DNA of 64,000 nucleotides from Pleurotus djamor. Lineage: Eukaryota; Basidiomycota; Agaricomycetes; Agaricales; Pleurotaceae. Shown one piece after another: positions 470 through 63,192 of the stretch. Every line of letters starts with the position of its first letter. Positions within the stretch are counted from its first letter, which is position 1. The position numbers and the translations under genes were made by a program. The stretch is taken from assembly GCA_029747585.1 (NCBI GenBank), contig JAPEVF010000212.1, positions 1 through 64,000 on the forward strand, read 5' to 3'. Below the pieces are notes generated by a model, which had not been told where the DNA came from, did no database searches, and saw nothing but the letters and a program-made list of their open reading frames with translations.

Positions 470-2916
470 ATGTCAACAAGTTCTCCAACTCAGGTGCCCG
501 GAAGCTCGACGACCTCAGCAGCTGGCGTCGATGAAATGCTATCTGTCAATTGGTATCTCATCCAACGCCCTATCACCTATGCAACCGCCGAGCTTCGTCG
601 CTCTGAGCTCGAAACAATGAACCTTCCTCAACTTCGTAGCCACTTCGGCGAAGAGATCCTCTCTTCTTTCGATTATGTACCTGCGATCAACGCCACATTA
701 AAATTCTATTCGGTGAGTCCCCCCCCGCGTCAAAACTGACTATCGGTCTCATTCTTCGTAGCTTAAGGACAAGATATCGCTTGCGCAAACACACTTGCCT
801 GACTGGGCCGTCAATCTTGAATTGACTGACCTCAAAACCGCTGCCCGTATCAAAAAATTGATAAACAACACCCAGGATGATGACGCTGTCCACATGGCCA
901 TACACGCCGAAGAGGGCCAGGTCGCCATTAATTGGTTCTTTCATTCACACCGATCGATTACGCCCTTTACGAAGCGTATTCTCTTCTCGCAATATGATGA
1001 CGATTCGGGGTTGAACCGCCTCAAGCAGTATTTCATTGATCATGTTACAACAAACTACCACTTTACCCCCGAGCTCATCCATCTCAGTGCCGAAATAGTA
1101 CGTGTGCTATTCTTAGCCAAGGACCATCACTTACGACGCTTTTACAGATTGATGGCGATATACCAATCCAATTTTCTGGCTTGACGAATGAATGGGCAGC
1201 TGGATTGCAAACACGTCCGTTCACCCATATCACCCAAATCGCTACGCCACTTCGGGACCCCAGCATTTTTCACCTGCTTGTGAAAGTTAAAGGCGACGAT
1301 GAGGCTCGCGATACTGTTCCTGAAATCCAACGTGCGTCATCTCCGCCTCCGTATCCATAAAGGCTTATATCCTATTATCCAGGTTATGAACGGCTTGTCA
1401 AGGCCAAACTCGATCCTCCATCTAAAGAGTCGAAGCCATCGAAGTTCATAAGCCACCAAATGAAAGAGACCAGGATCTATGATGGACGCTTCGCCCAAGA
1501 TTCACCGGGCGTTTCAACCATTGCTCCTCCCGTCGAGATTTATAGCCAAGTTTTCGGCAAATTCCTTTCTCTTTTGCAGGATGATAGCCACCAGCCGTCA
1601 CCAGTGGATATTGCATGCGTCAAAGAGCTCTCGACCCTTCTATCCGCCATCACTACTGCCCATGAAACCTCTCGAAACAATGATGTCCGCGAAGCACTCA
1701 CCGCGTTTTTTGGTCAAAGCTTGAAGTTGTTGAGCAAGGCCAATAAGGATGGCACCCTCCCAGACGGTGTCATCTTTATCACCGTTGGCGACATCAAGAT
1801 TCCCATACTTATTCTGGAACTCAAGAATGAACTAGGGAAAGGCGATTGCGATCCCACCACCCAAGCAAGCTTGTCAATGCGATCCGCATGGTTGGATCCA
1901 ACAGTAAGTGTATCTCTTACCATTATGTTACCAATTCACCGATCATTGATCACTTATAGCGAAAACACATCCGTGATAGGTGCAACTGCCCTACCTTCCT
2001 CCTGGCTGGTGGAGGTGCTTGGCTAAACATTATGGGCGCCGTTCTCACGGATAAAATCATTGTTCAACGACTGACGGACATGACATGGCTCGCTCGCTCC
2101 TCCACAGAGGAGGCACGTCGTATCTACATGGCTGCACGGTCGCTCACCGCACTTCGCTCATCCTTGCAACTTTTGGAAAGCTATTATACTACTGAAGTCT
2201 CCTTGGTTGAAACGACCATTCTCCACCAGCGATTTTTCCCCTACCCAACTTCGTACCGGCCCAACGGTCAACAAGAAGTTGCGTTCGAATATGTCCGGCC
2301 TTTACAGCAGACCGATACATGTATGACTTTCCTCGCCAGGACAACATCGGAACCGAAGACCCATATCGTTGTTAAATTCGTCACTGCCTATGGAGAAGCT
2401 GTCCACCGTTTTCTCGCTGAACGTCAACATGCACCTGAACTCCGATACTTTGGCCCTCTCCCTCACGGCCTCATTCCGCCACCAACTGCTTCACGCCATG
2501 CTCCTCCTGGCCTTTTCCTTCAGCCGTTCCAGATGGTTGTCATGGACTACGTTGATGCGCTGCCTAAGAGTGCTCGTCCGGACGATGCTACTAAGCAAGT
2601 TGCGGATGTCCTCAAACTCCTTACTGATCATGGATTTGTCTTTGGGGACCTTCGTCGCAACAATGTTCTGTTCACGTTCACTCTTGATCATGATCAGGAG
2701 GAGGAGAAGAAGAAAGTTCAATTCATCGACTTTGACTGGGCTGGCTACGAGGAGGGTGGAACTAACAAGCCAGAAAACTATAGTGGTCCATATGCTTACT
2801 ATCCGTATGACATCAACATGGACCCGGAGATCCGCTGGCATCCTGATGTGAAGCCGTTGACCCCGATTCGAGCCGAGCATGATACTCATATGTTAGAAAA
2901 ACTCTTTGCGCAATAG
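470..2916 (+). CDS. Crinkler-like protein: PD-(D/E)xK nuclease fused to a protein kinase
   Basis: Five exons (470-712, 762-1097, 1148-1331, 1383-1903, 1960-2916) give 746 aa and all phases agree. Residues of about 320-430 form a restriction-nuclease-like core: an Asp in LPDGV, then the ExK signature in ILELKNE. The C-terminal 290 aa are a kinase-like domain with a catalytic loop FGDLRRNNVL and a DFG-equivalent IDFDWAGYE, followed by a conserved YPYDINMDPEIRWHP segment. This nuclease-plus-kinase order is known from Crinkler-type (CRN/CR) effectors of oomycetes and fungi, which are thought to act in host or rival nuclei or in intragenomic conflict. I do not see a classic LxLFLAK header, and there is no signal peptide. 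The Arg after the catalytic Asp, where kinases usually have Lys, may alter activity. The start at 470 was chosen as the first Met that begins a compositionally protein-like segment. In-frame Met 386 is possible. Confidence 0.8.
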
Positions 2917-3171
2917 TCATCGATCCATCCTTCTCTTCTTACATGTACATAGTGGTAATGGCCTTGTCCAAATTCTGCATTGCGAGACTTCTGCCGGAGT
3001 TCTTGAAATTCGAGCTGGCCTCCAATTGACCCCACTGTCTCAGGCCCAACTCATGATCAGACTGCCCCTGACTTGTCTTCGTGCGCTTGTTCCACCTTCA
3101 ACCCACCCACTGTGACCCAGGCTTGTCGTTTGCTACGAGTGCCCGATGCGAAGCTGATACTTTTCACAAGG

Positions 3172-4707
3172 ATGAATCAACAACAGCTCCTTGACCTCCG
3201 ACTTTGCAAGGAGATCGCTAGACACGAAGCTTCCATTGTCGCACTCAAGACCTCTCGCAATACATACAGCGTCATCTCTCAGCTTCCGGATGAACTCCTT
3301 GCCCAAATATTCCTGATCGTGAAGAATAGTCCAGTGGTAATTCGACGAAGGGACTTCGGAGACAAATATGATGGGTGGATATTTAGCGGCGAACGTCAGT
3401 GGAGGGTCGTTCTAGCCGTTTGCAGTCATTGGCATCAAGTCGCGATGAACATGCCCCGACTATGGTCTCAAATTACGCTTTCGAACGCCACGGTAAATCG
3501 TGCTACGGAGATGTTCAAGCGATCCAGGGATTCTCCTCTCACTATCGAGTATTTCCTTCAAACAGCGTCAGCTGCTCGTTACCACGACGGCTTTTGGTCC
3601 GCCTCCGAAAAGATATTGGGCGCTGTCAGCAGGATGCAAGAGCTACGCATTAGCTTCATCATCATCGTCGACGAGACGCTTATCGACCGAATATTTTCGT
3701 TCTTGAAGGCGCCTTCGGCTCCTCTCCTCGAGAAATTGGTTTTGTTCTCGTCTTCCGAGTTCTCTGAGTTGACGAAACCTTTTCCTTGGGCTGCGGTACC
3801 ATCGCTTCGCGTCTTGCAACTTCGCCAGATGCTCATCGCCCCAGACTTTCCCCCTTTGCCAAATTTGATTGAACTCGAAGTCGACTTCTTCTGCACCTCG
3901 ATTGCTTGGCTGCTCGCCATGCTGCAGTCTGCGCCAAACGTCGAGGACCTTCACATTGATCGAATATCTTCACAACTTTGCGATCAGGCAGTTGCTTTGG
4001 GGACAACAGTAGCGCTTCCCAAGCTGCGCAAGCTTCGGTTAAATCTGGACGATTTTGCAGATTCGAAGCTCTTTGCACACTTGGAATTTCCCAGCTCCGC
4101 AACCATCTTTGATATTACTATCTACAGATGCATTACGCCAGTTGATACCACATACCTGAAGAGACTATGCTCTCGAATTCCCCACGGAAACGCACCTCAT
4201 TCCCTGAAGGTTATGATAAATGAAGGACCGTACTTCTTGATCTCGCTATGTGGGGTCACTAGTCAAATCCCCCATTTTACTCTATGCACCCCCATGACGC
4301 ATCTCGACTGCATCGAACTATGTTCATGCCTCCTACCGACCCAGATTTCGACTCTGGACATACGTGGTTTACCGTCACGATCTGACTGCGAACTATGGTC
4401 AGACCTCATCCCCCACTTTGAGAACCTCACTTCGCTGTCCTTGGAAATGTGCGATATTGCAATTTTACGCAGACTCCAACCAGATCAGCATGGCAAACTT
4501 TCGAATTCGAGATTAGAAACAATATCTTTGGTTTCGTACTCGTTTCTACATCAAGGACATGCATTCATCGGGGATATTGTCAAGCTCCTCGAGGTTCGGA
4601 AGCGATACGGCGTCCCTGTCAACCTTCTCTCCCTTCACGACTGCGAAGTCTCAGATGACACTGTAGCAGAGTTTCGTCGCTTTGGTACTGTCGTTGATAT
4701 GAGCTGA
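3172..4707 (+). CDS. F-box domain protein with LRR-like C-terminus
   Basis: Single exon of 511 aa from Met 3172. An upstream in-frame Met at 3073 gives a less plausible leader. A short coiled N-terminus leads into an F-box-like segment, ISQLPDELLAQIF, followed by the typical downstream block WRVVLAVCSHWHQVAMNMPRLW. The rest alternates hydrophobic and polar residues with many leucines (PSLRVLQLRQM, LPKLRKLRLNL), as in degenerate LRR arms. In Agaricomycetes such proteins are a large expanded family. By family knowledge they would recruit substrates to an SCF ubiquitin ligase through Skp1; the target is unknown. It lies 255 bp downstream of the Crinkler-like gene on the same strand, with no sign that they are linked functionally. 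Confidence 0.85.
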   Translation: MNQQQLLDLRLCKEIARHEASIVALKTSRNTYSVISQLPDELLAQIFLIVKNSPVVIRRRDFGDKYDGWIFSGERQWRVVLAVCSHWHQVAMNMPRLWSQITLSNATVNRATEMFKRSRDSPLTIEYFLQTASAARYHDGFWSASEKILGAVSRMQELRISFIIIVDETLIDRIFSFLKAPSAPLLEKLVLFSSSEFSELTKPFPWAAVPSLRVLQLRQMLIAPDFPPLPNLIELEVDFFCTSIAWLLAMLQSAPNVEDLHIDRISSQLCDQAVALGTTVALPKLRKLRLNLDDFADSKLFAHLEFPSSATIFDITIYRCITPVDTTYLKRLCSRIPHGNAPHSLKVMINEGPYFLISLCGVTSQIPHFTLCTPMTHLDCIELCSCLLPTQISTLDIRGLPSRSDCELWSDLIPHFENLTSLSLEMCDIAILRRLQPDQHGKLSNSRLETISLVSYSFLHQGHAFIGDIVKLLEVRKRYGVPVNLLSLHDCEVSDDTVAEFRRFGTVVDMS

Positions 4708-6294
4708 CATATCAGTATATCGCCATAGAAGGGCTTCGCTGCTGTGGAGCAATTGCTGTGATAAATCGAAGCCGATGTTAGGACTCAGGTCGATTTAGCT
4801 CCATGTCAGCCACTGATATGATGAACACTGACTCCCTTCCCAAAGGGTTTGCACCGAATGGCGCTAACCAACATTGCTCGATGTCAGTGTACGCACTAAA
4901 GATGTAATGAGAGGTGAGAAGCTCAAGAGGAAGCCATCACGCTGGCACTCGAAACGGTTTCAACTTTCATGCGCCTCCGAAGCGAATTGTTCAATGACAG
5001 TTCGGGTACGATTCATGGCAAAGCGAGGACTCTGACAGGAAGATAGCTTGAGTAAGAAGTGCTCCCAAAATTGTATCGTATTACCATGACTCTACACAAC
5101 AAATGTCTGTTCTCCACGGAACTGCATTCAGGAGTAAGGATAGGGACTCGGATCACATGAAGCGGCGACCAAAAAAAGTCCAGACGCCCGACAAGCTTGC
5201 TCCCAACCCAGTTCCTACTCAGTACTCAGTCCGAGCTAGAAGCCCGCGAACGCTGCTCGTGGGCTGAATTTCTCAGCTTCAACGGACGACTTGACTCCAG
5301 AGAAACCCGAACATCTACATTGATGGGGCCGCAGCAACTCTTCACGCCCCCTCAGACTGCTTTTATAAATTATCACCCAAATCTGAGACTCCGAACGTGA
5401 TAGGTACTTCGGTAACCGAAGACCTACAAGAACTGTGTCACATACCTCTTCAGGCCTCTGGTCTGACTCTTGGCTTCACGGGAAGGAAGATCGGTACTCG
5501 TATCGATTAAATGAACCCGGATGGCTAGTAATTGAATATTAACTCTTTAGAGGACTCATGAGCACAAGGTCAGCTGTCGTTATCGGTTCCTGAAGAGTTC
5601 GCTCATTGATATATCCTTTTCAGGTAGCTCACTATAGCTTCAGGCATGGAAGCAGGGTGACTTGGAGGCGTAGGAACTGCCAACAAGGAGCAAGCTACGT
5701 TAACCCCCATGGAAGACGTATTATGCACCACACCGTAAAGAATCGATACCCCTTCAAGATAAACGTTAACGCTAATCATCGATTTTACCCAGTTCGCAGG
5801 AAAAGGTCAATGTGTCGTTCGCATATCCCGCCGGGTTCTCGGTCAACTCTAACCACTCAATATCGCCTGTCAGCACTCGTAAACTGAGGGCATCCGTTTC
5901 TCAGCATGACAGATAAATGGATGGCGTTAAGCACCGTTCACAATGGGACGAGGATATTGGAAAACAGCGGAACGTGCTGAAGAACATTCCACCTGCCATC
6001 GGGCGCTTCAAGCTTTGAACTCGGTTTATGGCATCATGGATGCTGGATGTTCAGGGTTGCGATGATGTTGCCCTGAATATCCTTCTTCCGGGAAGACCAG
6101 GTCCACTCCGTCTGTCTGAACAGACCCTCTTATCGGTCATTTTACCATTATTCCAGTATTCCTTCCGTCGCTTCAATTCATTTTGATGGACATCCGACCA
6201 CTGACATGTTCGGGAAAGCGATGCGGGGAGGGTACTATAAGATGCCCTGGGAGTCTTTGTTCCATCCGTCAGACCCCTTCTGAACACCGTCAAA
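4708..6294. other. Intergenic, 1.6 kb
   Basis: Only short unconvincing open frames. The last 60 bp hold a TATA-like box for the gene at 6295. No repeat or RNA gene recognised. Confidence 0.5.
6233..6240 (+). promoter_or_regulatory. TATA-like box for the Ser/Pro-rich gene
   Basis: The sequence tactataa sits 55 bp upstream of the start codon at 6295, a usual distance for basidiomycete TATA promoters. Confidence 0.45.
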
Positions 6295-36669: not shown

Positions 36670-39600
36670 TTAGTCTAACGACTCCACCGCAGAAGGCTCA
36701 TCAGCTTCAGGGAGTACTTGTACATTGTTCTGATCCTTAGCCGTGCGATCCAAGAAGACTTGAAGTTGTCCATTATCAAGCTTGGTGAAGCCTTCTTCGA
36801 AGAAGTCGGGTGTCTTCCATTGCTGGCGTCGACCTGGACAAAAGCGGAAAATGTCATTTTTTTCGTAATGAGCTCCAAGAGTGTTGAAATCATCAATGAG
36901 CGACGCATCGGTATGGCTTCCAGAGCTAGGCGTAAATCCAAAGAACGAGCTCAGCCATTCTCGTACTCGTGTAAAGCCATCAATGTTCAGAGATACTTCT
37001 TGAATGAATGGTGAATCGAAGTCGAGGTTTCGAGAGTTATACATGGTCTTGATTGAGCGGTTGTAATGTTCTTGCATGAGATCAAGCTCATGGAAATGTC
37101 CCACCTTGCCAGAGGGATTGACGAGGCAGTTGTTCATGATTGCAGTGATGAGTGCAGGCGGGTACTCAAACATGAAGTTGCAGGCGAGCTCCAGTAGCTC
37201 GTTACCGTAGTTTGTCGAGCCACTACCCCAGAAGAAGAAGCGGAGTAACTAGAATCAAGTTTAGTGAGAAACGAGACAGACAAATAAATTAAATAGAGAC
37301 AGAGGGCTTACCTTTACTACCTCAAATACTCGTCCGCTGCCACCATATGATATTGCGTGGTTCATTTCATAGTACCAGAGGCAATCGCGAAGGCGTAGAA
37401 TGAGATTCGCATGGACACGATCACCAGCCCAGTTTGGCTCCTCGTTATCAAGGGTTGCCTTTGATGGCCTTGGAATTGAAGGACCATCCTCAGCGTATAT
37501 GGTACGGTCCCGGCAAACATGTCCGAGAGAGTCGCAGTAAGCCGCAGTACACATGTAACGTCGGTATCCTTTGATCGCAAGACCATGTAGAAAGTCGAAG
37601 TTTGTCTTGGACAAGTGACCTCCACTAGCGAAGACCGCACTGAGACCGGGGACGAGATGGAGGCGTTGCGATGAAGGTAAAGGGTTTGGATGATCAAGTA
37701 GGAGAACACTGTGAAGAGAATTCTAAATTCAAACTTGACAAAGTTGACGGGGTAGACGTACCGCAACATTTCAAGGCACAATGCCTGAAATGTATCTGTA
37801 ATCGCGGCATCATGAGGATAGAAGTCACATTTCGTCGGGTTCAGCTTCTCGCGTCGTATTGCCTCACAATCACGTCGGAGTCCTTGAAGATGCTTGCCGG
37901 TTTTGTCTGGGAAATGAGCCTTGAAGAGGGCTTTGAGAAAAGCCCATTTCATATGCCAGAATTGAATGAATGGAAGAGCCCACGAATGCCGCGCGTAGGT
38001 GGTGACGTCACGTTTGGTGTAGTGTATGAGTTTCCGGACACGGTCGACCGTTAGCTGATCCCCTGCAATGAGGATCAGAAGGTCTTCAAAGTCCTTGTCA
38101 GCCATTCCAAGCTGGGATTGAGTAATATCCCTGAGGACATCACTGTTGCCCTCCGTAGTCGACTCGTCGATCCCACTGGTCCGTAACGGGTAAGTTGTAG
38201 ATTGATGGCGTCGGATGCGGTGCTTGTCAAAGCCATTGCGGAATATTTTGTTTACAGAGGTTCGATACTTATGAAGGGAGGGGATATGAGTTGTCCAGAT
38301 ACGAAGAAGAGTGGCCGCACCAACCGCAGCAATATGCTTTTGATCAATATCATCAACCAGCATATCTACGGTCAAGTCCTTGCGCCCATTCAAGGCAGCA
38401 CGCTCGAGGTACGGCTGTGAATTCATAGCACCCGCAGGAACATCCACCATCTCCACCAGAGTCGCCGCTGTACCACTTCGCACCTCGTCAACATTTGCTA
38501 CGGTTTGGTGCCATGCTCGGTGATGCTTGTTGATGTTGTCGAAGACGATTACAAAGAACTGGGCTTTTTGAGCGGCGCGGCGACCAAGATCCTTGAGCGC
38601 AGTGTCAGCAACGGCACTCAGAGAATGTAGATTGTCAACAACGGTGGAGTAGGCAACCGTGCATCCAATACTACCAAGTGCCTGGTAGACAAGGCGGTTG
38701 GTCCGGGACATGAAAAGACTGAGGCCGATAACTGTGGGAAGGAAGGAGGCACGCGGATTTCGAAGGAAGATAAGGAAAAGCTGAAGCACAGCGCTACCCT
38801 GTGTAGTCAGTCAGTACCGTTAACCCAAAAGAATTATGGTTGGTTCAACTTACACTCCAAGGATCATGAGACAAGTCTTTGAAGTATGCATCCCAGCCCT
38901 TTTTCGGTTCGGTACCACTCGAAGCATCAGGGGAAGCGTTACGAGCTTGATTGATATTGCTGCGTCGTTTGGGAGACACAGAAATAGTGGTGAGGGCAGA
39001 CCATGTGACGGGGGCGAGAGAAATGATCTTCTCTTTGACGGACTGGATGGAGAATGAGCTCAGAGCCTCCCATGACCACGGCGAAGGGGTATGGAAGCTA
39101 GGCTCTTGTGCGAGAAGTTCAGCTTCTTCATCAATTTTGTCGAGGGTGGTCTTGACGGCCCAGTGCGAGAGCGCGTCGCGTGTGCCAAGGCGGACACTGG
39201 TTTCAGCCTCAGAGGACTGGGGGGTCAGATGGGGAAGGTCGTAGGGGATGGAAAAGGGAGGGAGAATGGCTTGCGGATCGTACGGAGTTTGCTCCGAGGA
39301 TTTAGGATGCTTGTACCAAGCATGGACAATGGCCATCGGCGCGCGATTGTCAATGTTACGGCCACCCAAGAACGACGCGACGGTTTGGCTGACAACGGGG
39401 TGTTTATAATGAGCTCGCGTGTCAAAGAGCTGTTGGAGGAAGTGTCCGAACGAATCGAACCCGTGTTCATCAGTGATCGAGGCGAGGGCTCCAGCCAGCT
39501 TTTGTTCCCAAGTCCGGGGGGATGCGCGCGGCTTTTTGGTGACAGGCAAAGACGGAGGGGGAATGTTTTCCTTCTGATGCTTGTCAGCCGGCCTCTGGCC

Positions 39601-42886: not shown

Positions 42887-45242
42887 TCAAGCATCAAACT
42901 CGGGGACATCCGTCGTGAAGGGGGGTTGATCTGGATTCAAAAAGTGACTCACGCTTGGCTGCGCCTTGAGAGAAGTAACTTCGATGCGGGGCGAAGGGGG
43001 TACGGACAAGCTAAGTGTGGATTCGAGATCATCGGAGGCAGCCATCAATCGAGAGCCATTGACGCTCATTTTTGAAGGTTGTCTTTTGAGAGTGCGGACA
43101 GATTCGGTTGACGAGGAGCCGTTTGTCAAAGGGACGCCCATCCTTTCCTTGATTTTAGAGGCGGCGGCATCGATTAGGGTAGGTGCAATGTTCTTGATGG
43201 CAGTCTTTGCAGCTCCAAGCGCATACGGTCCGATCTTCTGTACCGTCGACTTGATGAAGTCGAAGATACCTTCTTCTTGCGATTGCCCAGCGACCGATGT
43301 CACTTTGAGCTGGTTAAGTTGGTCGCGAGGAAGCTTCCTGAGAGCAGTGAGCGCAGCATCCGCTACCAAAGCACGCTTGAAGACAAGCTGCGAGGCAGAT
43401 TGGGCAGCAGGGCTCACGGTGGTGGTGGATTCGAAGGAAGATTCGGCTCCAGCGCCATTGAGGAGATGAGGAATGATATCGGTGACAGCGTACTTTGCGG
43501 CGCGAGAAACAAGTGGTTTCGCGACACTGACCGCCTTTGTGATCAGACCACCGAGGAAATCGAAAGCACCTTCTTCGGCACCCGCAACAGGAACCGTCGC
43601 GCTGAGAAGTCCCTCAACAAAGGGCTCATCAATACCGCCAGCCTCCCCAAGAGGGATTCCAGTCAAAGGCTTGGGCGTGAGGTCTACCGTAGCTTCTTGA
43701 CTCTGAGGAGCTTTCACAGCTCTGTCAAACTTGAACCCTGCGATATCAAGTGCGCACTCTGTCAGTTGAGGAGCCAGTGCCATGGCAATCTCATCGACCT
43801 TCGGTGCGTAATCCAAGTATTGCTTCGACATGTCCGACAGAACCGTCTGGAGAACAGGGTGATTAGGGTCTTGATCGAGGAGGTTCAAAACACCTTGGAG
43901 GGATGCCTCTGCTAGAACTGCTCGCTCTGCGGTTCCAGGGGCAATCGGTTCTCCAGAACGGTTGATGACAGCGGAAATGGTAGATTCTTGCCCGGCAATA
44001 GCACCCAGCAAACCACCAGCTACAGGCGCCACGATGGATCCGATAGGGCCAAGGAAGGGTGCACCTGCGGTGACTACTGAAGAGCCAACTCTGGCAATCG
44101 ATTTCAACACATCGAAGAAGCCTTCCTCAACGTGATTGTCGTCAGATGGACGGTAAACTGGGGATGGGTTGTGAGAGGTTACAGGATCAACCGGATTACG
44201 GGGAGTGGGAGGTTTGACAGGGCTAGGAGCGGGAGGATTTCGAGGATCGCTCGGGACAGCTACAGAGTCGAGGGGAACAACTCGGATCTTGTTAGTCTGG
44301 GGTGCGAAGCTTGTCTTTTGTTGGTTGAACAAGTTGAGGTACTTGGTGTAAGGGTTACCCCATTTGCCGCCGATAGAATTGCCTGAGTTGCCGGGGATTC
44401 CGTTGCCAGCACCGTAGCAATGCGTACCAATGACAACAAGCCCCTCCTTGGTCTTCGCGATGACCGGCGCGCCAGACTGACCACCATAGGTGGATAGGAA
44501 GTACGTGATCATGTGGAGCTTGTCTGTGTTCAAGTCGAAGGTGGTCCTCACAAACTCGCCATACATCTCCGCTCCTTTCTCTCCCTTCAGGTCCTTATCA
44601 CCGGGGTATCCAACGACGCCAAGCATGAGAGAAGCGGAGGGCTCGGTATCGGCGAACTTGAACACGTTGAGGTTCCCCACAAACGGCTTGTGGACACGGA
44701 TGAAGGCGACGTCGTGGGGACGGTCGTTGAGTCCACTGGGGGTCGGTGTTGCCCAGTTCTGTGTGGTAGCCACATATTGACCATAACGGGGTTGGGCACC
44801 TTCCTTGATGGAGTCGACGCCATCAAATCCGACATAGCATTTGAGCTGGGTGCAAGCACCAAACCCGTAGGATCGATCGTACACGACGTGCCCAGCAGTG
44901 ATGAGGGTATCGGCGTTGACGAGCCAGCCGGTACCCATCATCCAGACTTCACCGTTGGGACTATTGAAACGAGATTGGATCTTGACGACAGCTACGTTGG
45001 AGTATAATATTAGTCCTGCGTGTATTCTATGGCATAGTAGAAACTTGCTTACATCGGTATTTCCCGCCGTCTGCGAAATCTATAGCATTGATGCGCTCGC
45101 GGGCGTCAATGCCGCCGATGATAGACTCGCCCTCGGCACCAGCATTGTGAGTTTCAGAGACGATGCTTTCTGCTTCGGCACTGATCTGGGGACGACCGGG
45201 GATATCAAGGATCCAAGTAGCAGCCATAGTAGAGGCAGACAT
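42887..45242 (-). CDS. V8-like serine protease fused to a hydrophobic repeat region (paralogue A)
   Basis: Two exons (45242-45053, 44991-42887) give 764 aa. There is no signal peptide. A short propeptide-like leader ends in SIIGGIDARERINAI, matching the mature start of V8-type glutamyl endopeptidases (S1B). The catalytic triad is visible: His in LITAGHVVYD, Asp in PHDVAFIRVHKPF, Ser in YGGQSGAPVIAK. After about residue 280 a Pro/Asn linker leads to a 450-aa C-terminal region with three amphipathic, Ala/Gly/Val-rich repeats. They begin at EEGFFDVLKSIARVG, EEGAFDFLGGLITKA and EEGIFDFIKSTVQKIG; the first contains APFLGPIGSIVAPVAGGLLG. The tail is Ser/Pro-rich. I infer an intracellular protease with a membrane-active or self-assembling partner domain. 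The paralogue at 47428 is divergent. A TATA box lies about 100 bp upstream. Confidence 0.85.
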
Positions 45243-47427: not shown

Positions 47428-49680
47428 ATGTCGACGATTGCTGCTACCTGGACCCTAAACGTCGCTGGTCTTCCTCAGATCAAAGCTGAGTCGAAAACCG
47501 AAACTTCCTCCGCCCATGATTCGCCTCAGGAAGTCATCTATGGCGTCGACACTCGAGAACGCACTAATGCCTTGGACTATGGAGATGGCGGCAAATATCG
47601 CTGTAGGTGGCCTTTATCGTCGCAGAGTTTACTCTAAAAACGTCCCATAGCCATTGTAAAGCTCCAATCCAGGTTTGAGGGTCTAAACGGCGACGTCTGG
47701 ATAATGGGAACGGGATGGCTTGTGTCCCACGACACCCTCGTTACTGCTGGCCATCTCGTCTTCGATCACACCCACAGTTATGGCGGTTGTACACAGATCA
47801 AATGCTTCATCGGGTACGATGGAGCCGAATCTGTGACCAAGCCTGGTTCTGGTGTTCAATTCCGCTATGGTCGCTACATCGCCACGCCCCAGAAATGGAC
47901 ACAGCAAGTTGGTGGACACCTCCACGATGTTGCCTTCGTCAGAGTTCACAAGCCTTTTACGGGGAACCTCAACGTTTTCAGTTTCATCGACACTCAGCCT
48001 TCTGCTAGAGTCGTTCTTGGTGTTGTTGGGTATCCTGGCGACAAGCTAGTCAGAGGGGAGAGAGGCGCGCAAATGTACTCGGAATTCATGAGGATTACGT
48101 ATGGTCTTGCCGAAAACCCATCACACATGATCTCGTACGACCTATTTGGCGGCCAGTCTGGTTCACCGATCATTGCGAAAACTAAGGATGGGTCGTTGGT
48201 CATCGGTACCCACTGCTGCCAAGACGGCGGGTCTGGCAGAAGCTTAGGAAGCTCTATCGGCGGGAAATGGGGAAACCCGTATACGAAGTACCTCGACTTG
48301 TTCAAACGACAAGCAAACTTCGTTCCTCAAATCAATACGATTCAGTACATTTCCCTCGATTCTGCGTCGACCCTTCGTCGGACCTTAAGCTCCACCTCCA
48401 TTAGTCTATCCAGCCCTCGGTTATCGCCTCCGATCGGTGAAAACTACATCGTAGAAGGCTTTCTTGATGTACTCAAAGCGATTGCGCGAGTTGGTTCAAC
48501 GACCGTTACACCAGGTGCCCCATTCCTCGGACCCATTGGCTCTTCCGTAGCGCCTGTAGCGGGTGCGCTACTAGGAGCCATCGTTGAGAAGACCTCATCC
48601 ATCTCCAATTCGCCTAATTGTCCCGCCACTCCCGGTGCTGCAGAAAGAGCCATCCTAGCCGAATCGTCGCTCCAGGCTGTTTTAAATCTTTACGAGCGCA
48701 GCCCCGACCATCCGATTGTTCAGACAATTCTGTCCAGCATGTCGAAAGAGTACATGTATCATGCACCTGAAGTTGGCCCGATCGCAATCAAGCTGGCCAC
48801 ACATTTGACGGAATGCGCTTTCGATATCGTCGCGTTCAAGTTTGCTATGGCTTTGGGGGTTTCTGGGTCTGGAGAACCCATGCCAGAGCTTGTTCGACAG
48901 CCCTTGACTGGTATGGCTTCGCCCGAAGGTACCGTTACGGAAGATGCGTTCTTTCAGGGACTCCGTAGTGCAATTGTTCCTGTTTCTGGTGTCGAAGACG
49001 GCGCCTTCAATTTCGTAGGTCATCTAATCACTATGGCCGCCAAAACCACGATACCTCTTGTTTCTCATGACGCGAAATCTGCCATTGTGGACATATCTCC
49101 TCACCTGCTCTGCGCTCCCAATGTTGAATTAGCTTCCCCTCCTGCCACGAACATGAGCGCCGCCACGCAGTCTACATCGAAACTTGTGTTCCAGCGCGCC
49201 CTGATGGCAGATGTGGCGCTTTCTGCTCTCAGAAAATTACCTCGATATCAACTTGATCACCTCGCCTTCAAAGAAAGCGGGCGATCACATACGGAGGGAA
49301 TATTCGTTTCCATCAAGCATGCAGCGCAGGAAATTGGACCGTACGTCCTGGTGGTTGCTCAGACCGCTATTCAACGCTTCGCACCCACTCTTGTCGACGC
49401 AGCGGCGTCTATGCTCAAGGAGAGGCTCTCGGATTCGACTGGGAGTACGACTACTAGCCCTCTTGTGTTGCCCCAATCGGTTCGGGCGTTGGAACGGAAA
49501 CCTGCTCCTACCAGCATTACGAGCCCTCCATTGACGCCCCGTCGCGAATATTGGCTTCCTTCCACCCCTCCTTCGAAGCTTTCGTCTCCTCGGAGGATAC
49601 TCAAGAGACCACCGAGCCTTGCCTACTTGCGGGACGACTCTTCTCATACCTCTGATGGATTATTTTCCCTTTCGGAGTGA
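47428..49680 (+). CDS. V8-like serine protease fused to a hydrophobic repeat region (paralogue B)
   Basis: Two exons (47428-47602, 47651-49680) give 734 aa. The single intron is in the same place and phase as in paralogue A. The leader ends in EVIYGVDTRERTNAL, and the triad is conserved: VTAGHLVFD, HDVAFVRVHKPF and FGGQSGSPIIAK. The C-terminal region repeats the same plan: VEGFLDVLKAIARVG, then APFLGPIGSSVAPVAGALLG, VEDGAFNFVGHLITMA and TEGIFVSIKHAAQEIG. Conserved Glu-Gly (or Glu-Asp-Gly) begins each repeat. V8-type enzymes cut after Glu, so these positions could be processing sites; this is inference. No TATA box was seen. The family is S1B-like by motif only, and substrate specificity needs a structure or assay. 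Confidence 0.85.
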
Positions 49681-49880: not shown

Positions 49881-50281
49881 TCACCTCCTTCCTGCGCTTT
49901 GGCTAGGGCAAACCCCAATGACGGTCAGCGGGACACGTAGTTTCACGCTCTAGCTTACCCGTGTGCTTGGGTCCTATTATGCCCCGAGCTGGTAGGAGTA
50001 TTGGTATTGTAGGTATTGAAACGTCCACCATTATTCCCGCCGCTGATAGTGCCGCTGAAGGTATCTCCCGCGATTTGAGTCAGACTGCCAAAGAAGTTCT
50101 GCATTCAATCACAGTCATGTAGCGAACTTGGAGTCAAACTTGCCCGCTGACTACTGGTGCCCTTCGAGTGGTAGACGCGTTGTTGGTATTGGTGCCTATT
50201 CACAGCCAACTATTCAGCGCAATCCGATGCAGGAAGTTGTTGGAATGACTTACTATTTCCTCTGTCTCTGTTTGAATCCAT
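49881..50281 (-). CDS. Small GDxFxG-motif protein, copy 0 (no coiled coil)
   Basis: Four minus-strand exons (50281-50254, 50195-50140, 50098-49959, 49902-49881) give 81 aa with consistent phases. The core reads AGDTFSGTISGGNNGGRFN, the same Gly/Asn-rich motif as the four copies at 59-63 kb, here followed by a polar Thr/Asn tail and an early stop. The coiled coil of the other copies is absent. A TATA box sits 52 bp upstream. The upstream block at 50461-50640 is an inverted copy of the block upstream of copy 4. The second intron needs a weak donor (gtttga), so the exon 2/3 junction is less certain. Function unknown. Confidence 0.6.
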
Positions 50282-59153: not shown

Positions 59154-59717
59154 ATGTCTAACAACAGAGGCCGCATCAGTAGGTTCATTCATGAGATGGG
59201 TGTCCTAGCCACTCACGACTTGTCCAGCAACCGGAAACGGCGCTTCCTTTGGAAGTGGGCGTGCCGGCGACGCTCATAATTCCTACAACACCAGCAGGTA
59301 TATTCTATATGAAGCTTTGGAAGTCGCATCTTCACTGATCACCTTCTCCCCGTATGAAAGCCACAATACGTATGAAGGTGATACCTTCAGCGGTCGTATA
59401 ACTGGTGGCAACATAGGCGGACGGAACAACAGCAACACTGTCTACAATAACCGGCCCAACCCATACACCGCGGACTGTAAGCTAGTCTCTGCTTCCGATC
59501 TCCCGGCTGACAATTGAAAGAACTGATTTTCAATTCGTCTTTCATAGCGGAAGCGATGGAGAAAGAGCTGGAACGTCTGAAGGCACAACTGGCTGAGAAG
59601 AAGGCCCGTGCCGCCGATAGATCCAAGAAGGAGAAACTGCGGAAGGACCTGGAGGCCGTGCAGAAAGAGCTCGAAGTGTACGAAGATGCGGAAGAAGACG
59701 TTCCGAAGTATCTCTAG
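59154..59717 (+). CDS. Small GDxFxG-motif protein, long form, copy 1
   Basis: Four exons (59154-59178, 59228-59297, 59361-59476, 59548-59717) give 126 aa. Exon 2 encodes a first Gly/Asn-rich unit (TGNGASFGSGRAGDAHNSYN), and exon 3, exactly 116 nt, encodes the core EGDTFSGRITGGNIGGRNN. The last exon encodes a charged coiled coil with heptad-like leucines (EAMEKELERLKAQLAEKKA). No signal peptide or membrane span. The two Gly/Asn units look like imperfect repeats of each other, as in two-repeat amyloid-forming domains; this is inference. It follows PRP2 on the same strand at 337 bp. Copy 3 is its closest paralogue. Confidence 0.75.
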
Positions 59718-60123
59718 CAATTATTATCATTGTATCTGCATACACACGGAACCTTTCCCATCAAAGTTCGAGATGAGGGACAGCCTGTAAGGGCAATCGA
59801 TCCTCTGAGATTCGACGTTCAGCGGGTTATCCTTCAAGAAGTCTGTTGGATCTTTGTGCGTCCACTTAATGCCTCGTGTTTGTCCACAACATCACAACGA
59901 GGTGGGCCAGGAGGCCTTACCGACTGCGCCGGTGGTCTGACATGCTTCACAAAATCCTTGGGTGACATCTTCGAGGCCGGCATGAGGCTTCATTATTGGC
60001 GCCATCGATCGATCTACGACTACGTCTGTTGCCAGAACGAAACCACCTGGTGTTCACGTACATTGACAGACATATATAAGTAGCTGTAGCTACCTGAGCC
60101 ACGGCCCACTCATATCTCACATC
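59718..60123. other. Intergenic, 0.4 kb: promoter of copy 2
   Basis: The segment near 59945-60010 resembles the end of the block upstream of copy 4 (cttcacaa, gaggcttc, ttggcgcc in order). No gene seen. Confidence 0.45.
60073..60079 (+). promoter_or_regulatory. TATA box of motif gene copy 2
   Basis: tatataa 51 bp upstream of the start codon at 60124. Confidence 0.6.
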
Positions 60124-60609
60124 ATGCAAAACAAAGCAAGACCGAACGGTAAGAGGCTCACAAACATGGTGGCGTTGACGATCACCCAATGAGCTAGGGG
60201 AGAGATCAAAGGCCAGCAAAGAGTATCACACTTATCGGGAGGCTCACAATGGGTGCGTCAAGCCATAGGCTTAGATTTGAATGATAAATCAATATGGAAC
60301 TTCCTCACAGTGTGACACACTACGACGGGGATACTTTCAGCGGCACCATAAGTGGCGGGAATAACGGCGGACGGCAAAATGCTTACAACAGTTATACCTG
60401 GGGGAGAGACGAAGATGAAGAGACAAGTACGCTTGAACACTGCCTCGGATGTGGTTCTCCGTTGACATTACTTTTCACCTTGGAATTTAGTCAAAGTATT
60501 GGAGGAAAGGCGAGAGCAACTTCTGGCTGTTAAAAGGGCTGAGGAGGAAAAGGCTAGAAAAAAGCATCTTCAGGAAGAAATCGATGCTCTCGAGGCGGAA
60601 GGATACTAG
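60124..60609 (+). CDS. Small GDxFxG-motif protein, short form, copy 2
   Basis: Four exons (60124-60148, 60198-60252, 60311-60426, 60491-60609) give 104 aa. The first two exons encode a basic, polar leader (MQNKARPNGERSKASKEYH) instead of the Gly/Asn unit of the long forms. Exon 3 is again 116 nt and encodes DGDTFSGTISGGNNGGRQN followed by an acidic stretch DEDEE. Exon 4 encodes a coiled coil (KVLEERREQLLAVKRAEEE). Its closest relative is copy 4. Every phase and splice site is standard. Confidence 0.72.
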
Positions 60610-61094
60610 ATGAGAATGAGAGCTCGAATGCAACAATTCCAGTCCGAAGTTACCCAGGGGGACACAGGGGCTGCGAAAGAATAAGGACGGTCGAGCGCGG
60701 GCGCTCATTTCAACCGACCACTGGCACAACAAGCAACCACATTCTCTGCGTTCCAAGGCCTTCAAAGTCCCTCAATCACGGTGCAACCTGGGAACTTGCT
60801 GGAAATTCTAACCTTTTCTGACTGAGCTGCCTCGACTTGCGAAGACATCTTGAGAAAGATTTCACCTCACTCACTGCAAACCTTTGACCCATCTCAAGTT
60901 GGTGGTGTGTTCTCCATGCTTGTTGTCTGGTCGTACCTTCTGCACAGTCCAAAAACTTGAAAGTGGTAAGCACCTGTACAGGCCTTTCATTGGCTCTACT
61001 CTCATCACCACCCACTACCAGGCAAGTCGGTTCGTAGTGAGCGGTTGCGACTCACGTCGAAGTATTAGTTGAACCTAATGAAACCCTCTACACG

Positions 61095-61242
61095 GTTGGT
61101 TCTTGATGTGGTGTGATAGTACACATTCCCTTCGGGGAAAGAATCTCCCGTGCCCTTCGCAGCTACACCCCATGACCTCAAGCCCACAGACCTCGAGGAC
61201 CAGCTATCGGCGACAAAAGACGCCCAAAGCTGTAGGATTGAT
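61095..61242 (+). pseudogene. Degenerate duplicate of the last PRP2 intron and exon
   Basis: Aligns with about 58640-58790: the end of exon 10, the last intron and exon 11. Shared words include cgcag followed by caccccat, gacctcgag and ggcgacaa. The frame is broken by indels and early stops, so it is non-coding. It sits about 420 bp before copy 3, as the true PRP2 end sits about 440 bp before copy 1. Confidence 0.75.
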
Positions 61243-61537
61243 CAAAAGCTTGGTACCGAAGCTGCTTTTGGATTGCAGTTTGCGTTCTATTCCAGGTTTT
61301 ACAATGGGTAACCGCTGACTCAAGTCGCGGTGTGTTCTCTCTGTCGCCGATAGAAGAGCTCAGATACCAGACAGTACCCGTTCATTCACGCCATCGAGTT
61401 TCAGACGTTAATAGATCACTCAGATAAGCGCTTCGTACACCTTCTCGTGTCCCTGTGGGCATGGCTGTGGCACATTTGCCGTTCCTTTTCGTTATCTGTT
61501 CCGGTGCTTCGACTCATGGCTCCCTCTGTCTTCGATG

Positions 61538-61545
61538 TATAAATA
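61538..61545 (+). promoter_or_regulatory. TATA box of motif gene copy 3
   Basis: tataaata 36-43 bp upstream of the start codon at 61581. Confidence 0.6.
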
Positions 61546-61580
61546 CAGCGGGCTCGAATAATCACACTCAAACTCACAAC

Positions 61581-62150
61581 ATGTCTTACAACCAAGGTCA
61601 CATCAGTACGTCTGCCATTACTTATACCAATGGCCTTGCCTCTGACGTCGAACTTAGCTACTGGAAACGGCGCATCGTTTGGGAGAGGGCGAGCTGGAGA
61701 TGCTCGTAATTCTTACAACACTCACAGGTCTGCTCAGCCAATCACGGGAATTCGCACACCCATTGACCTCCCTATCCATCGACAAGTAATAACACGTATG
61801 GAGGTGATAAATTCACCGGCCATATTTCTGGTGGAAACGTAGGTGGACGCAACAACAACAACACTATCCACAATAACAAAGCCGGTCCTCCCCGCGAAGA
61901 TGACAGTGAGTCAATCCTCGGACACAATCTGTGGCTTCAAGGTGATCCACATCTAACATCTTGTAAACGCATTGCAGCGGAGGCGATGGAAAAAGAGCTG
62001 GAACGCCTTAAGGCACTTCTGGCTCAGAAAAAGGCCCGTGCCGCTGAGAAGTCTAAGAAGGCGAAATTGGCACAGGACCTTGCCGCCATGCGCAAAGAGC
62101 TCGAAGTTTTCGAAGATGCAGAGGAGGATCTTCCACAGTATCAATCCTAG
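61581..62150 (+). CDS. Small GDxFxG-motif protein, long form, copy 3
   Basis: Four exons (61581-61605, 61658-61727, 61787-61905, 61978-62150) give 128 aa. Exons 1 and 2 have exactly the same lengths as in copy 1 (25 and 70 nt), and exon 3 is three nt longer. The first unit reads TGNGASFGRGRAGDARNSYN, the core GGDKFTGHISGGNVGGRNN, then an acidic linker and the coiled coil EAMEKELERLKALLAQKKA. Substitutions relative to copy 1 are mostly conservative, which suggests the protein is under selection. It lies in the duplicated block that starts with the PRP2 remnant. Confidence 0.75.
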
Positions 62151-62374
62151 TGCGACTGGTTGGTTATCATGTCCATGTCCTCCAGAATTTTACGTTGCAC
62201 CCACGAGAGACCTCAGCACGCGCACCAAAGATAAGATGAGACATGGAAAATCGACGCTCAAATGAACGTTTTGAAGCACCTTTCCATCCCACTTCCAGCT
62301 AGCTTATCAACGTACGAGCGTCTGAACCTCGTCGAAACTCTCAGAATAGCTGGTCATCCCCTTCTATCTCCTCC

Positions 62375-62568
62375 GTTCCCAGACCCACCTCGTCAGCAGA
62401 TCTCTGCGGGCGTCTCCTTGAAGCCTCAAGGCCTCACCTACTGCCTCAACTAAACAGCGAGGGAGGCACGAAACCTTATCAGCTACTTCAGCGCTCCATC
62501 GTGCTTCACAAGACTTGGATGTCGGGTTCAAGGCGGACACGAGGCTTCGCAACTGGCGCCGTAGGCAC
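62375..62568. repeat. Upstream block of copy 4, inverted copy at 50461-50640
   Basis: Partner of the block upstream of copy 0. The two are in opposite orientation but at matching distance from their genes, so promoter and gene were probably copied together. Confidence 0.75.
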
Positions 62569-62680
62569 CGTCTCCTTCTATTCATCTCGTAAAGAGGACA
62601 TACGGAGCAACCCAGTCTGTGTCAGTCAGGCGCTTGAAGAGAAGCATCTCAATGTCGTGACTACCTCACCAAGCCCAACG

Positions 62681-62687
62681 TATATAA
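62681..62687 (+). promoter_or_regulatory. TATA box of motif gene copy 4
   Basis: tatataa 49 bp upstream of the start codon at 62730. Confidence 0.6.
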
Positions 62688-62729
62688 GGCATTCCCTAGG
62701 GTGCTATGACTTGGTCTTAATCCACAATC

Positions 62730-63192
62730 ATGAAAGAAGCGAATAGTAAGCACTCCTGGCACTTTCATACGTTGAACTGAATAACTCAATGTGGGTAGAA
62801 GCCAACGCTCGAAAGGTCCCAGTCGTTCACAGGTGCGTGGAACGAGTGATTCCACGCTGAATGAAGCTCATACGATACAATGTAGCGGGACTCGCTACGA
62901 TGGGGATACCTTCAGAGGCACTATAAATGGAGGGAATAATGGCGGACGGCATAACACTTACAACGACTATACTTCAAAGAGTGACGAAGATGAAGAGCGC
63001 CGTAAGTTTGCACACTCTACCAGCTCCGTTGATTTTGATTTTCGTTTCCAAAATTAAGTCAAGGTGCTGGAGGCCCGGCGAGACCAACTTCTGGCTGATA
63101 AAAGGGCCAAGGAGCAAAAGTCTAGGGAGGACCAACTCAAGGCAGAGATTGCTGCCCTTGAGATGGATGAAACGGAAGAAGCCCAGACATGA
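62730..63192 (+). CDS. Small GDxFxG-motif protein, short form, copy 4
   Basis: Four exons (62730-62745, 62799-62832, 62886-63001, 63059-63192) give 99 aa. Exon 3 is 116 nt, as in copies 1 and 2. The leader is short and basic (MKEANKANARKVPVVHSG). The core is DGDTFRGTINGGNNGGRHN with an acidic DEDEE stretch, then a coiled coil (KVLEARRDQLLADKRAKEQ) and an acidic end. Copy 2 is its nearest paralogue. Together copies 3 and 4 mirror copies 1 and 2. Confidence 0.72.

What the first reader, a model, noticed from the sequence alone, without database searches (positions are those of the whole stretch)
59154..63192. A new family of small proteins with a Gly/Asn-rich motif and a coiled coil, four copies in 4 kb
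Seen: four spliced genes share exon layout (a motif exon of 116, 116, 119 and 116 nt), a core motif GDxFxGxIxGGNxGGRxN, a C-terminal coiled coil and a TATA box at 36-68 bp. Two forms alternate: long (extra Gly/Asn unit) and short (basic leader). Known: short Gly/Asn-rich motifs with alternating hydrophobics (RHIM-like, HET-s repeats, bacterial BASS) form signalling amyloids that link fungal NLR receptors to cell-death effectors. Inference: the motif could be an amyloid-signalling or other self-assembly element, with the coiled coil as oligomerisation or partner module. The long forms may carry two pseudo-repeats like HET-s r1/r2.
Basis: partly seen in the sequence, partly recalled or inferred. 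Interest (0 to 1): 0.85.

Follow-up and report, generated by a model that had tools for sequence, protein, structure and literature searches.

The report
Mushroom family sharing a glycine-asparagine motif

Summary
The four spliced genes are real. The second haplotype keeps all 12 introns and all four frames; pooled allele dN/dS is 0.30, A-C 0.19, B-D 0.285. A fifth copy without a recognisable helical tail lies near 50 kb.

The motif is not low complexity. A profile built only from 29 non-window instances finds exactly the five window places (E 6.2e-13 to 1.4e-7; next 3.3). Searches list 54 candidate loci on 26 contigs; I read and aligned 34 instances on 20 contigs. The motif sits on a charged helix, a helical hairpin, a C-terminal membrane segment, or the C-terminal part of long frames.

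Not supported: none of 23 contigs with NACHT, NPHP3_N or NB-ARC hits is among the 26; the extra unit of the long forms is not a pseudo-repeat by profile; heptads in the window helices do not beat shuffles.

Best reading: an undescribed modular motif acting as a self-assembly or docking tag that joins different tails. Self-assembly is inferred; nothing here shows amyloid.

The parts
59154..59717 (+). Gene A (long form), 126 aa; exons 59154-59178, 59228-59297, 59361-59476, 59548-59717
   Evidence: P0004 (retains intron 2)
59361..59476 (+). Motif exon of A (116 nt), core GDTFSGRITGGNIGGRNN
60124..60609 (+). Gene B (short form), 104 aa; exons 60124-60148, 60198-60252, 60311-60426, 60491-60609
   Evidence: identical to P0002
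60311..60426 (+). Motif exon of B (116 nt), core GDTFSGTISGGNNGGRQN
61581..62150 (+). Gene C (long form), 128 aa; exons 61581-61605, 61658-61727, 61787-61905, 61978-62150
   Evidence: allele P0003 has the same structure; P0006 is a mis-spliced model of this copy
61787..61905 (+). Motif exon of C (119 nt), core GDKFTGHISGGNVGGRNN
62730..63192 (+). Gene D (short form), 99 aa; exons 62730-62745, 62799-62832, 62886-63001, 63059-63192
   Evidence: allele P0001
62886..63001 (+). Motif exon of D (116 nt), core GDTFRGTINGGNNGGRHN
49959..50281 (-). Fifth copy E: short leader and motif exon (core GDTFSGTISGGNNGGRFN); no recognisable helical tail; splicing unresolved; TATATAAG upstream
59548..59717 (+). 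Charged helical C-terminal exon of A (also B 60491-60609, C 61978-62150, D 63059-63192)
   Evidence: AlphaFold2 helix 69-121 on the C allele; charged fraction 0.50-0.57

Best explanation
These genes are members of a large Pleurotus djamor family built around one short motif of about 25-32 residues, roughly Y-x-GD-T-[FY]-x-G-x-I-x-GGN-V-GGR-x-N-x-N-T-I. The motif is a modular tag: unstructured in the monomer, with bulky residues at fixed spacing between Gly/Asn turns, and joined to tails of different kinds (charged helix in the window genes, helical hairpin, C-terminal membrane segment, or the end of long frames). Most likely mechanism: copies of the motif on different proteins stack with one another in a cross-beta or beta-arch manner, homotypically or within a subfamily, and so bring their tails together; the helices set partners and valence, the membrane-anchored forms place the assembly at a membrane. 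Shown here: the motif, its spread, its conservation under purifying selection and its changing tails. Inferred: that it self-assembles, that assembly is beta, that family members meet in the cell, and any downstream outcome.
For: Profile from 29 instances outside the window recovers 5 of 5 window copies and nothing else significant. Purifying selection: A-C dN/dS 0.193, B-D 0.285, pooled alleles 0.303; in 10 of 10 pairs of the five motif cores pS exceeds pN. 54 candidate loci on 26 contigs (merged). Different tails: helical hairpin with strong heptads (P0008: 0 of 5000 shuffles; AlphaFold2 helices 42-63 and 68-103); membrane segment in three C1064 frames (19-residue hydropathy 2.48, 2.38, 1.93); C-terminal part of 242-644 aa frames on C807. 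Over 34 instances, columns 12, 16, 21 and 30 are bulky in 100, 85, 82 and 81% and G9, D10, G22, G23, N26 are nearly fixed. Motif region has pLDDT about 40-47 in both models.
Against: No experiment and no amyloid predictor was run; AlphaFold2 predicts no strand in either model. Bulky positions are spaced 4-5 apart, not strictly alternating. No sequence match in Pfam above cut-off or in PDB. Instances were gathered by similarity to the window copies, so fixed columns such as GG are partly a result of how they were chosen. Many tails rest on single reading frames without proven splicing. A tag that binds one common partner would look the same.
Confidence: 0.42

Rival explanations
1. The motif is a docking peptide (short linear motif) recognised by one common globular partner, not a self-assembling element; different proteins carry it so that the same partner can find them.
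For: Fits everything sequence shows: strict core, disordered monomer, changing tails. Invariant Gly, Asp, Arg, Asn residues could be contacts.
Against: 32 columns are long for a docking peptide; Gly/Asn turns between bulky residues are more typical of stacking beta motifs (established knowledge, not tested).
Confidence: 0.3
2. Amyloid signalling in the strict sense: NLR receptors carry the motif at the N-terminus and activate cell-death effectors that carry it at the C-terminus; the window proteins are adaptors.
For: General resemblance to short Gly/Asn motifs; PMC9815663 (abstract, passages, sections 19 and 28 seen) reports a large agaricomycete group of NLR N-terminal motifs, NLR05/08/22/29/44; the C807 frames end with the motif, as effectors would; C289 has a GGGTFNDIRGHQHNY unit before the core, which recalls agaricomycete NLR N-termini from memory only.
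Against: 0 of 23 NLR contigs among the 26 candidate contigs; profile scan of 19 NLR loci best E 1.7; C807 frames hit no Pfam family. HeLo search not answered.
Confidence: 0.12
3. Gly/Asn/Arg-rich RNA-binding or condensate protein: the GGR-x-N core and basic leaders bind RNA and the charged helix supports phase separation.
For: GGR cores, basic leaders in B and D, helices 50-57% charged.
Against: One GGR per protein, not RGG repeats; the Arg is replaced in 9 of 34 instances; bulky columns are conserved.
Confidence: 0.1
4. Chance low-complexity sequence or mis-predicted genes.
For: Gly/Asn-rich composition; short genes; hardly any annotated relative outside P. djamor.
Against: Selection and intron conservation, cross-validated profile and shuffles, 36 against 2 in the pattern control.
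Confidence: 0.02

Closest known systems
[quoted passage not shown]
   Same: Short motif of 20-30 residues, Gly at fixed turns, disordered when soluble, shared between proteins of different architecture in one genome.
   Different: HRAMs come as two 21-residue pseudo-repeats on HeLo proteins with partner NLRs (PMC7889193, passages); here one unit per protein, no pseudo-repeat by profile, no NLR carrier found. No sequence relation was tested for lack of their sequences.
NLR05/08/22/29/44 motif group of agaricomycete NLR N-termini (PMC9815663, sections 19 and 28)
   Same: Same fungal class; short; described there as having hydrophobic positions followed by a G[DN] pair; C289 and the C840/C787 frames have a similar-looking first unit (visual, from memory of such N-termini).
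   Different: Those sit on NLRs; these do not. Logos and supplements were not available, so direct comparison was not made.
RHIM and RHIM-like (PP, BASS3) motifs
   Same: Idea of a homotypic beta tag on signalling proteins.
   Different: The RHIM core (I/V-Q-I/V-G, recalled) is absent from the aligned instances by inspection; no homology test was run.
Pleurotus small secreted proteins (SSPs; PMC5674062 and PMC7105643, search listing only)
   Same: Small orphan proteins of the genus.
   Different: The window proteins start with polar or charged leaders, no signal-peptide-like stretch by eye; no predictor was run.

Membership tests
HRAM / HET-s amyloid motif | two pseudo-repeats of about 21 residues | tested here: not met
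   Motif profile gives at most 5.8 bits on the first units of seven long-form sequences; real motifs of the window score 43.9-62.1 with the cross-validated profile.
NLR-associated amyloid signalling motif | present at the N-terminus of an NLR | tested here: not met
   0 of 23 NLR contigs among 26 candidate contigs; 19 NLR loci scanned, best E 1.7. Search scores only best candidates and reads exon by exon, so a missed carrier is possible.
NLR-associated amyloid signalling motif | present at the C-terminus of a cell-death effector (HeLo, HELL, MLKL-like and others) | tested here: inconclusive
   C807 frames have the motif in their C-terminal part but no Pfam hit; the PF14479 search did not complete.
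NLR-associated amyloid signalling motif | forms amyloid and seeds partner | not testable with these tools
   needs peptide and in vivo assays
Amyloid signalling motif (general) | short motif shared by proteins of different architecture within a genome | tested here: met
   34 instances on 20 contigs with helix, hairpin, membrane-segment and long-frame contexts.
RHIM | I/V-Q-I/V/L-G core (recalled) | not tested
   only inspected by eye; no search run
Coiled-coil protein | heptad patterning of the C-terminal helix | tested here: not met
   A-D: 1686-4976 of 5000 shuffles reach the periodicity, 1262-4471 of 5000 reach the a/d count; the hairpin relative P0008 does pass (0 of 5000). No dedicated coiled-coil predictor was run.
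any Pfam family | match above curated cut-off | tested here: not met
   Best for A-D is Wbp11, 22.3 bits against a cut-off of 24.3, on the charged helix; nine family frames or proteins none above cut-off.

The most novel reading that the evidence does not exclude
A receptor-free homotypic assembly network of a mushroom: dozens of proteins that share one cross-beta tag but carry helical, hairpin, membrane-anchored or long soluble parts, co-assembling without any NLR, perhaps in recognition between the two nuclei or between individuals, since the genes are haplotype-variable and one copy (E) had no counterpart among the listed hits on the other haplotype.
Probability: 0.18. Interest if true: 0.85.

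Novelty: new variant of a known kind. Interest (0 to 1): 0.55.

Why it matters
Evidence for motif-based amyloid signalling in Basidiomycota is still thin (PMC9815663, sections seen). A motif family of this size in an edible, culturable mushroom, with its copies on helices, hairpins and membrane tails but on no detected NLR, would be a direct test case for whether such tags work outside the NLR-effector scheme. It also shows a family that annotation largely misses: the single-exon membrane forms had no database protein in our searches, and two of the cluster's predicted proteins are mis-spliced around the motif.

Tried and rejected
Low complexity or chance: rejected. Pseudo-repeat in the long forms: rejected by profile. 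Coiled coil in A-D: not supported by two heptad tests. NLR link: not found. Known family: no Pfam above cut-off, no PDB sequence match of note (weak ribosomal and other hits E 0.29-0.95), hairpin model without Foldseek match at E <= 0.001. Relatives elsewhere: three protein searches gave eight proteins, seven from P. djamor and one weak P. eryngii protein (P0007, E 0.1 against the whole database); one search had only one candidate, so it says little. The prokaryote genome scan found no relative (64 pattern stretches, none confirmed). Literature: six peptide strings of the motif occur in 0 papers; topic searches listed no paper on this family; one search looked for the genome paper and none of the 10 listed titles was it.

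Papers: PMC9815663 abstract, passages, sections 19 and 28; PMC7889193 passages; PMC12881547 passages; PMC4518210 passages; PMC5674062 and PMC7105643 search listing only.
Full report
Source. The window is contig C544 (69,098 bases) of a 55.9 Mb assembly in 1413 contigs. The best database relatives are Pleurotus djamor proteins on contigs of 69,098 and 65,570 bases, the lengths of C544 and C564, so the species is Pleurotus djamor (Agaricales). C564 matches the cluster at 94.9 and 90.4% and is taken as the second haplotype.

Gene models. The four genes have four exons each; motif exons are 116, 116, 119 and 116 nt and intron phases are 1, 2, 1 in 4 of 4. All 12 introns, their GT and AG ends and all four reading frames are kept on C564. 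Divergence between haplotypes is 2.6, 2.4 and 5.4% at codon positions 1, 2 and 3; exons 3.5%, introns 3.9%, flanks 5.5%. Thus exons as a whole are hardly less diverged than introns; the coding signal lies in the third-position excess and in dN/dS: pooled alleles 0.303 (A 0.138, B 0.27, C 0.332; D has 3 non-synonymous and 0 synonymous changes), A-C 0.193 at dS 0.92, B-D 0.285 at dS 1.04. In 10 of 10 pairs of the five motif cores pS is above pN. A resembles C and B resembles D (71% identity A-C; cross matches at 67.9-71.6%), consistent with duplication of a long-short pair. A fifth copy, E, lies on the minus strand at about 50281-49959 with a TATATAAG box upstream; the motif frame ends soon after the exon and no helical tail was recognised.

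The motif is real. A profile built from 29 instances outside the window finds five window frames at E 6.2e-13, 1.8e-10, 1.2e-9, 6.2e-8 and 1.4e-7 among 1942 frames; the next is 3.3, and residue-shuffled frames reach 1.0 at best. The 29 were gathered by similarity to window copies, so the test is not fully independent; the composition-preserving control answers that in part: 43.9-62.1 bits for the five copies against 28.7 for the best of 2000 shuffles. The DNA pattern for GxNxGGRxN has 36 matches in the genome against 2 for the reversed pattern; 9 of the 36 are the window and C564 copies.

How widespread. Five translated searches of the genome listed 98 rows at E <= 0.01 (30, 20: 14, 43: 14, 44: 30, 45: 10). 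I dropped 18 that covered only leader, helix or tail and 24 repeats of a place already counted; the remaining 56 merge into 54 loci on 26 contigs. Both haplotypes are in this number, and not every locus was read. I aligned 34 instances on 20 contigs, leaving out most allelic partners; 33 of 34 are found letter for letter in one frame, the other (A) spans an intron. Some aligned instances (C472, C866, C47) came from the pattern search or from rows above E 0.01.

Anatomy. In 34 instances G9 and D10 are present in 33 each, position 12 is F or Y in 33, G22 and G23 in 34, N26 in 31, R24 in 25; positions 16, 21 and 30 are bulky in 85, 82 and 81%. Many instances have an alternating strand-like stretch before the core, such as HIHLH or ISFHF. 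The tails differ: charged helix (window genes); helical hairpin (P0008 and relatives on C951, C1049, C668, perhaps C996 and C670); a single frame with a C-terminal hydrophobic segment (three on C1064, one 98% identical on C718); frames of 242-644 aa with the motif in the C-terminal part, on C807 with counterparts on C847; and Asn-rich frames on C840, C787 and C100. In 7 of 16 places examined a plausible phase-1 donor follows the motif closely, as in A-D (the scan lists other donors too, so this is suggestive); P0008 shows that donor in use.

Structure. AlphaFold2 on six family proteins gives one helix (69-121) and a motif region at pLDDT 42-47; on P0008 alone it gives helices 42-63 and 68-103 with block pLDDT up to 90 and the motif below 50. 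No strand is predicted in either. The hairpin has no Foldseek match at E <= 0.001. Heptad tests fail for A-D and pass for P0008.

The NLR question. PF24883 gave 39 rows, PF05729 27 and PF00931 1, on 23 contigs; none of these is among the 26 candidate contigs. Of the NLR loci, 19 were fetched and scanned in six frames with the motif profile: best E 1.7; a composition scan upstream showed no such motif. So the receptor link is not seen in this genome; an NLR missed by the exon-wise search cannot be excluded, and HeLo effectors were not searched.

Elsewhere. The P. eryngii protein P0007 starts MGDAFLGTINGGNNGGRNN. Its E-value is 0.1 against the whole database and 7.6e-8 only when eight proteins are searched, so it is a lead, not proof, that the motif is older than P. 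djamor. Nothing in Pfam, PDB or the prokaryote collection.

Conclusion. Shown: a real gene cluster, a selected motif, its spread and its changing tails. Inferred: that the motif works by joining proteins, more likely by stacking with its own kind (0.42) than by binding one common partner (0.30). The strict NLR scheme is at 0.12.

Noticed in passing
window 42890-45079 (-) and 47638-49677 (+): Two related long frames with a Trypsin_2 domain (PF13365, E 3.8e-10 and 7.6e-8) flank the region just beside copy E; the second ends about 280 bases from E's motif exon. No link to the motif was shown.
   Followed up: partly
window 61581-62150 and 59154-59717: Database models of C (P0006) and A (P0004) are mis-spliced: one loses the motif core, the other keeps an intron.
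   Followed up: yes
L039 (C807:35500-44500), L066, L040 (C847): Tandem long frames of 242-644 aa with the motif near the C-terminus and an unknown N-terminal region (no Pfam, no PDB match of note); the nearest to an effector-like layout.
   Followed up: partly
L027, L028, L038 (C1064, C718): Single-frame proteins of 168-179 aa with the motif at the N-terminus and a C-terminal hydrophobic segment; no database protein matched them.
   Followed up: partly
L022 (C289, about 69885-70070): A GGGTFNDIRGHQHNY unit precedes the core; from memory it resembles N-termini of agaricomycete NLRs.
   Followed up: no
window 50281-49959 (-): Copy E had no counterpart on C564 among the listed hits; the region of C564 where it would lie could not be fetched.
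   Followed up: no
window 37365-38810 (-): Frame with DUF6589 (PF20231, E 4.1e-54), a family of unknown function.
   Followed up: no
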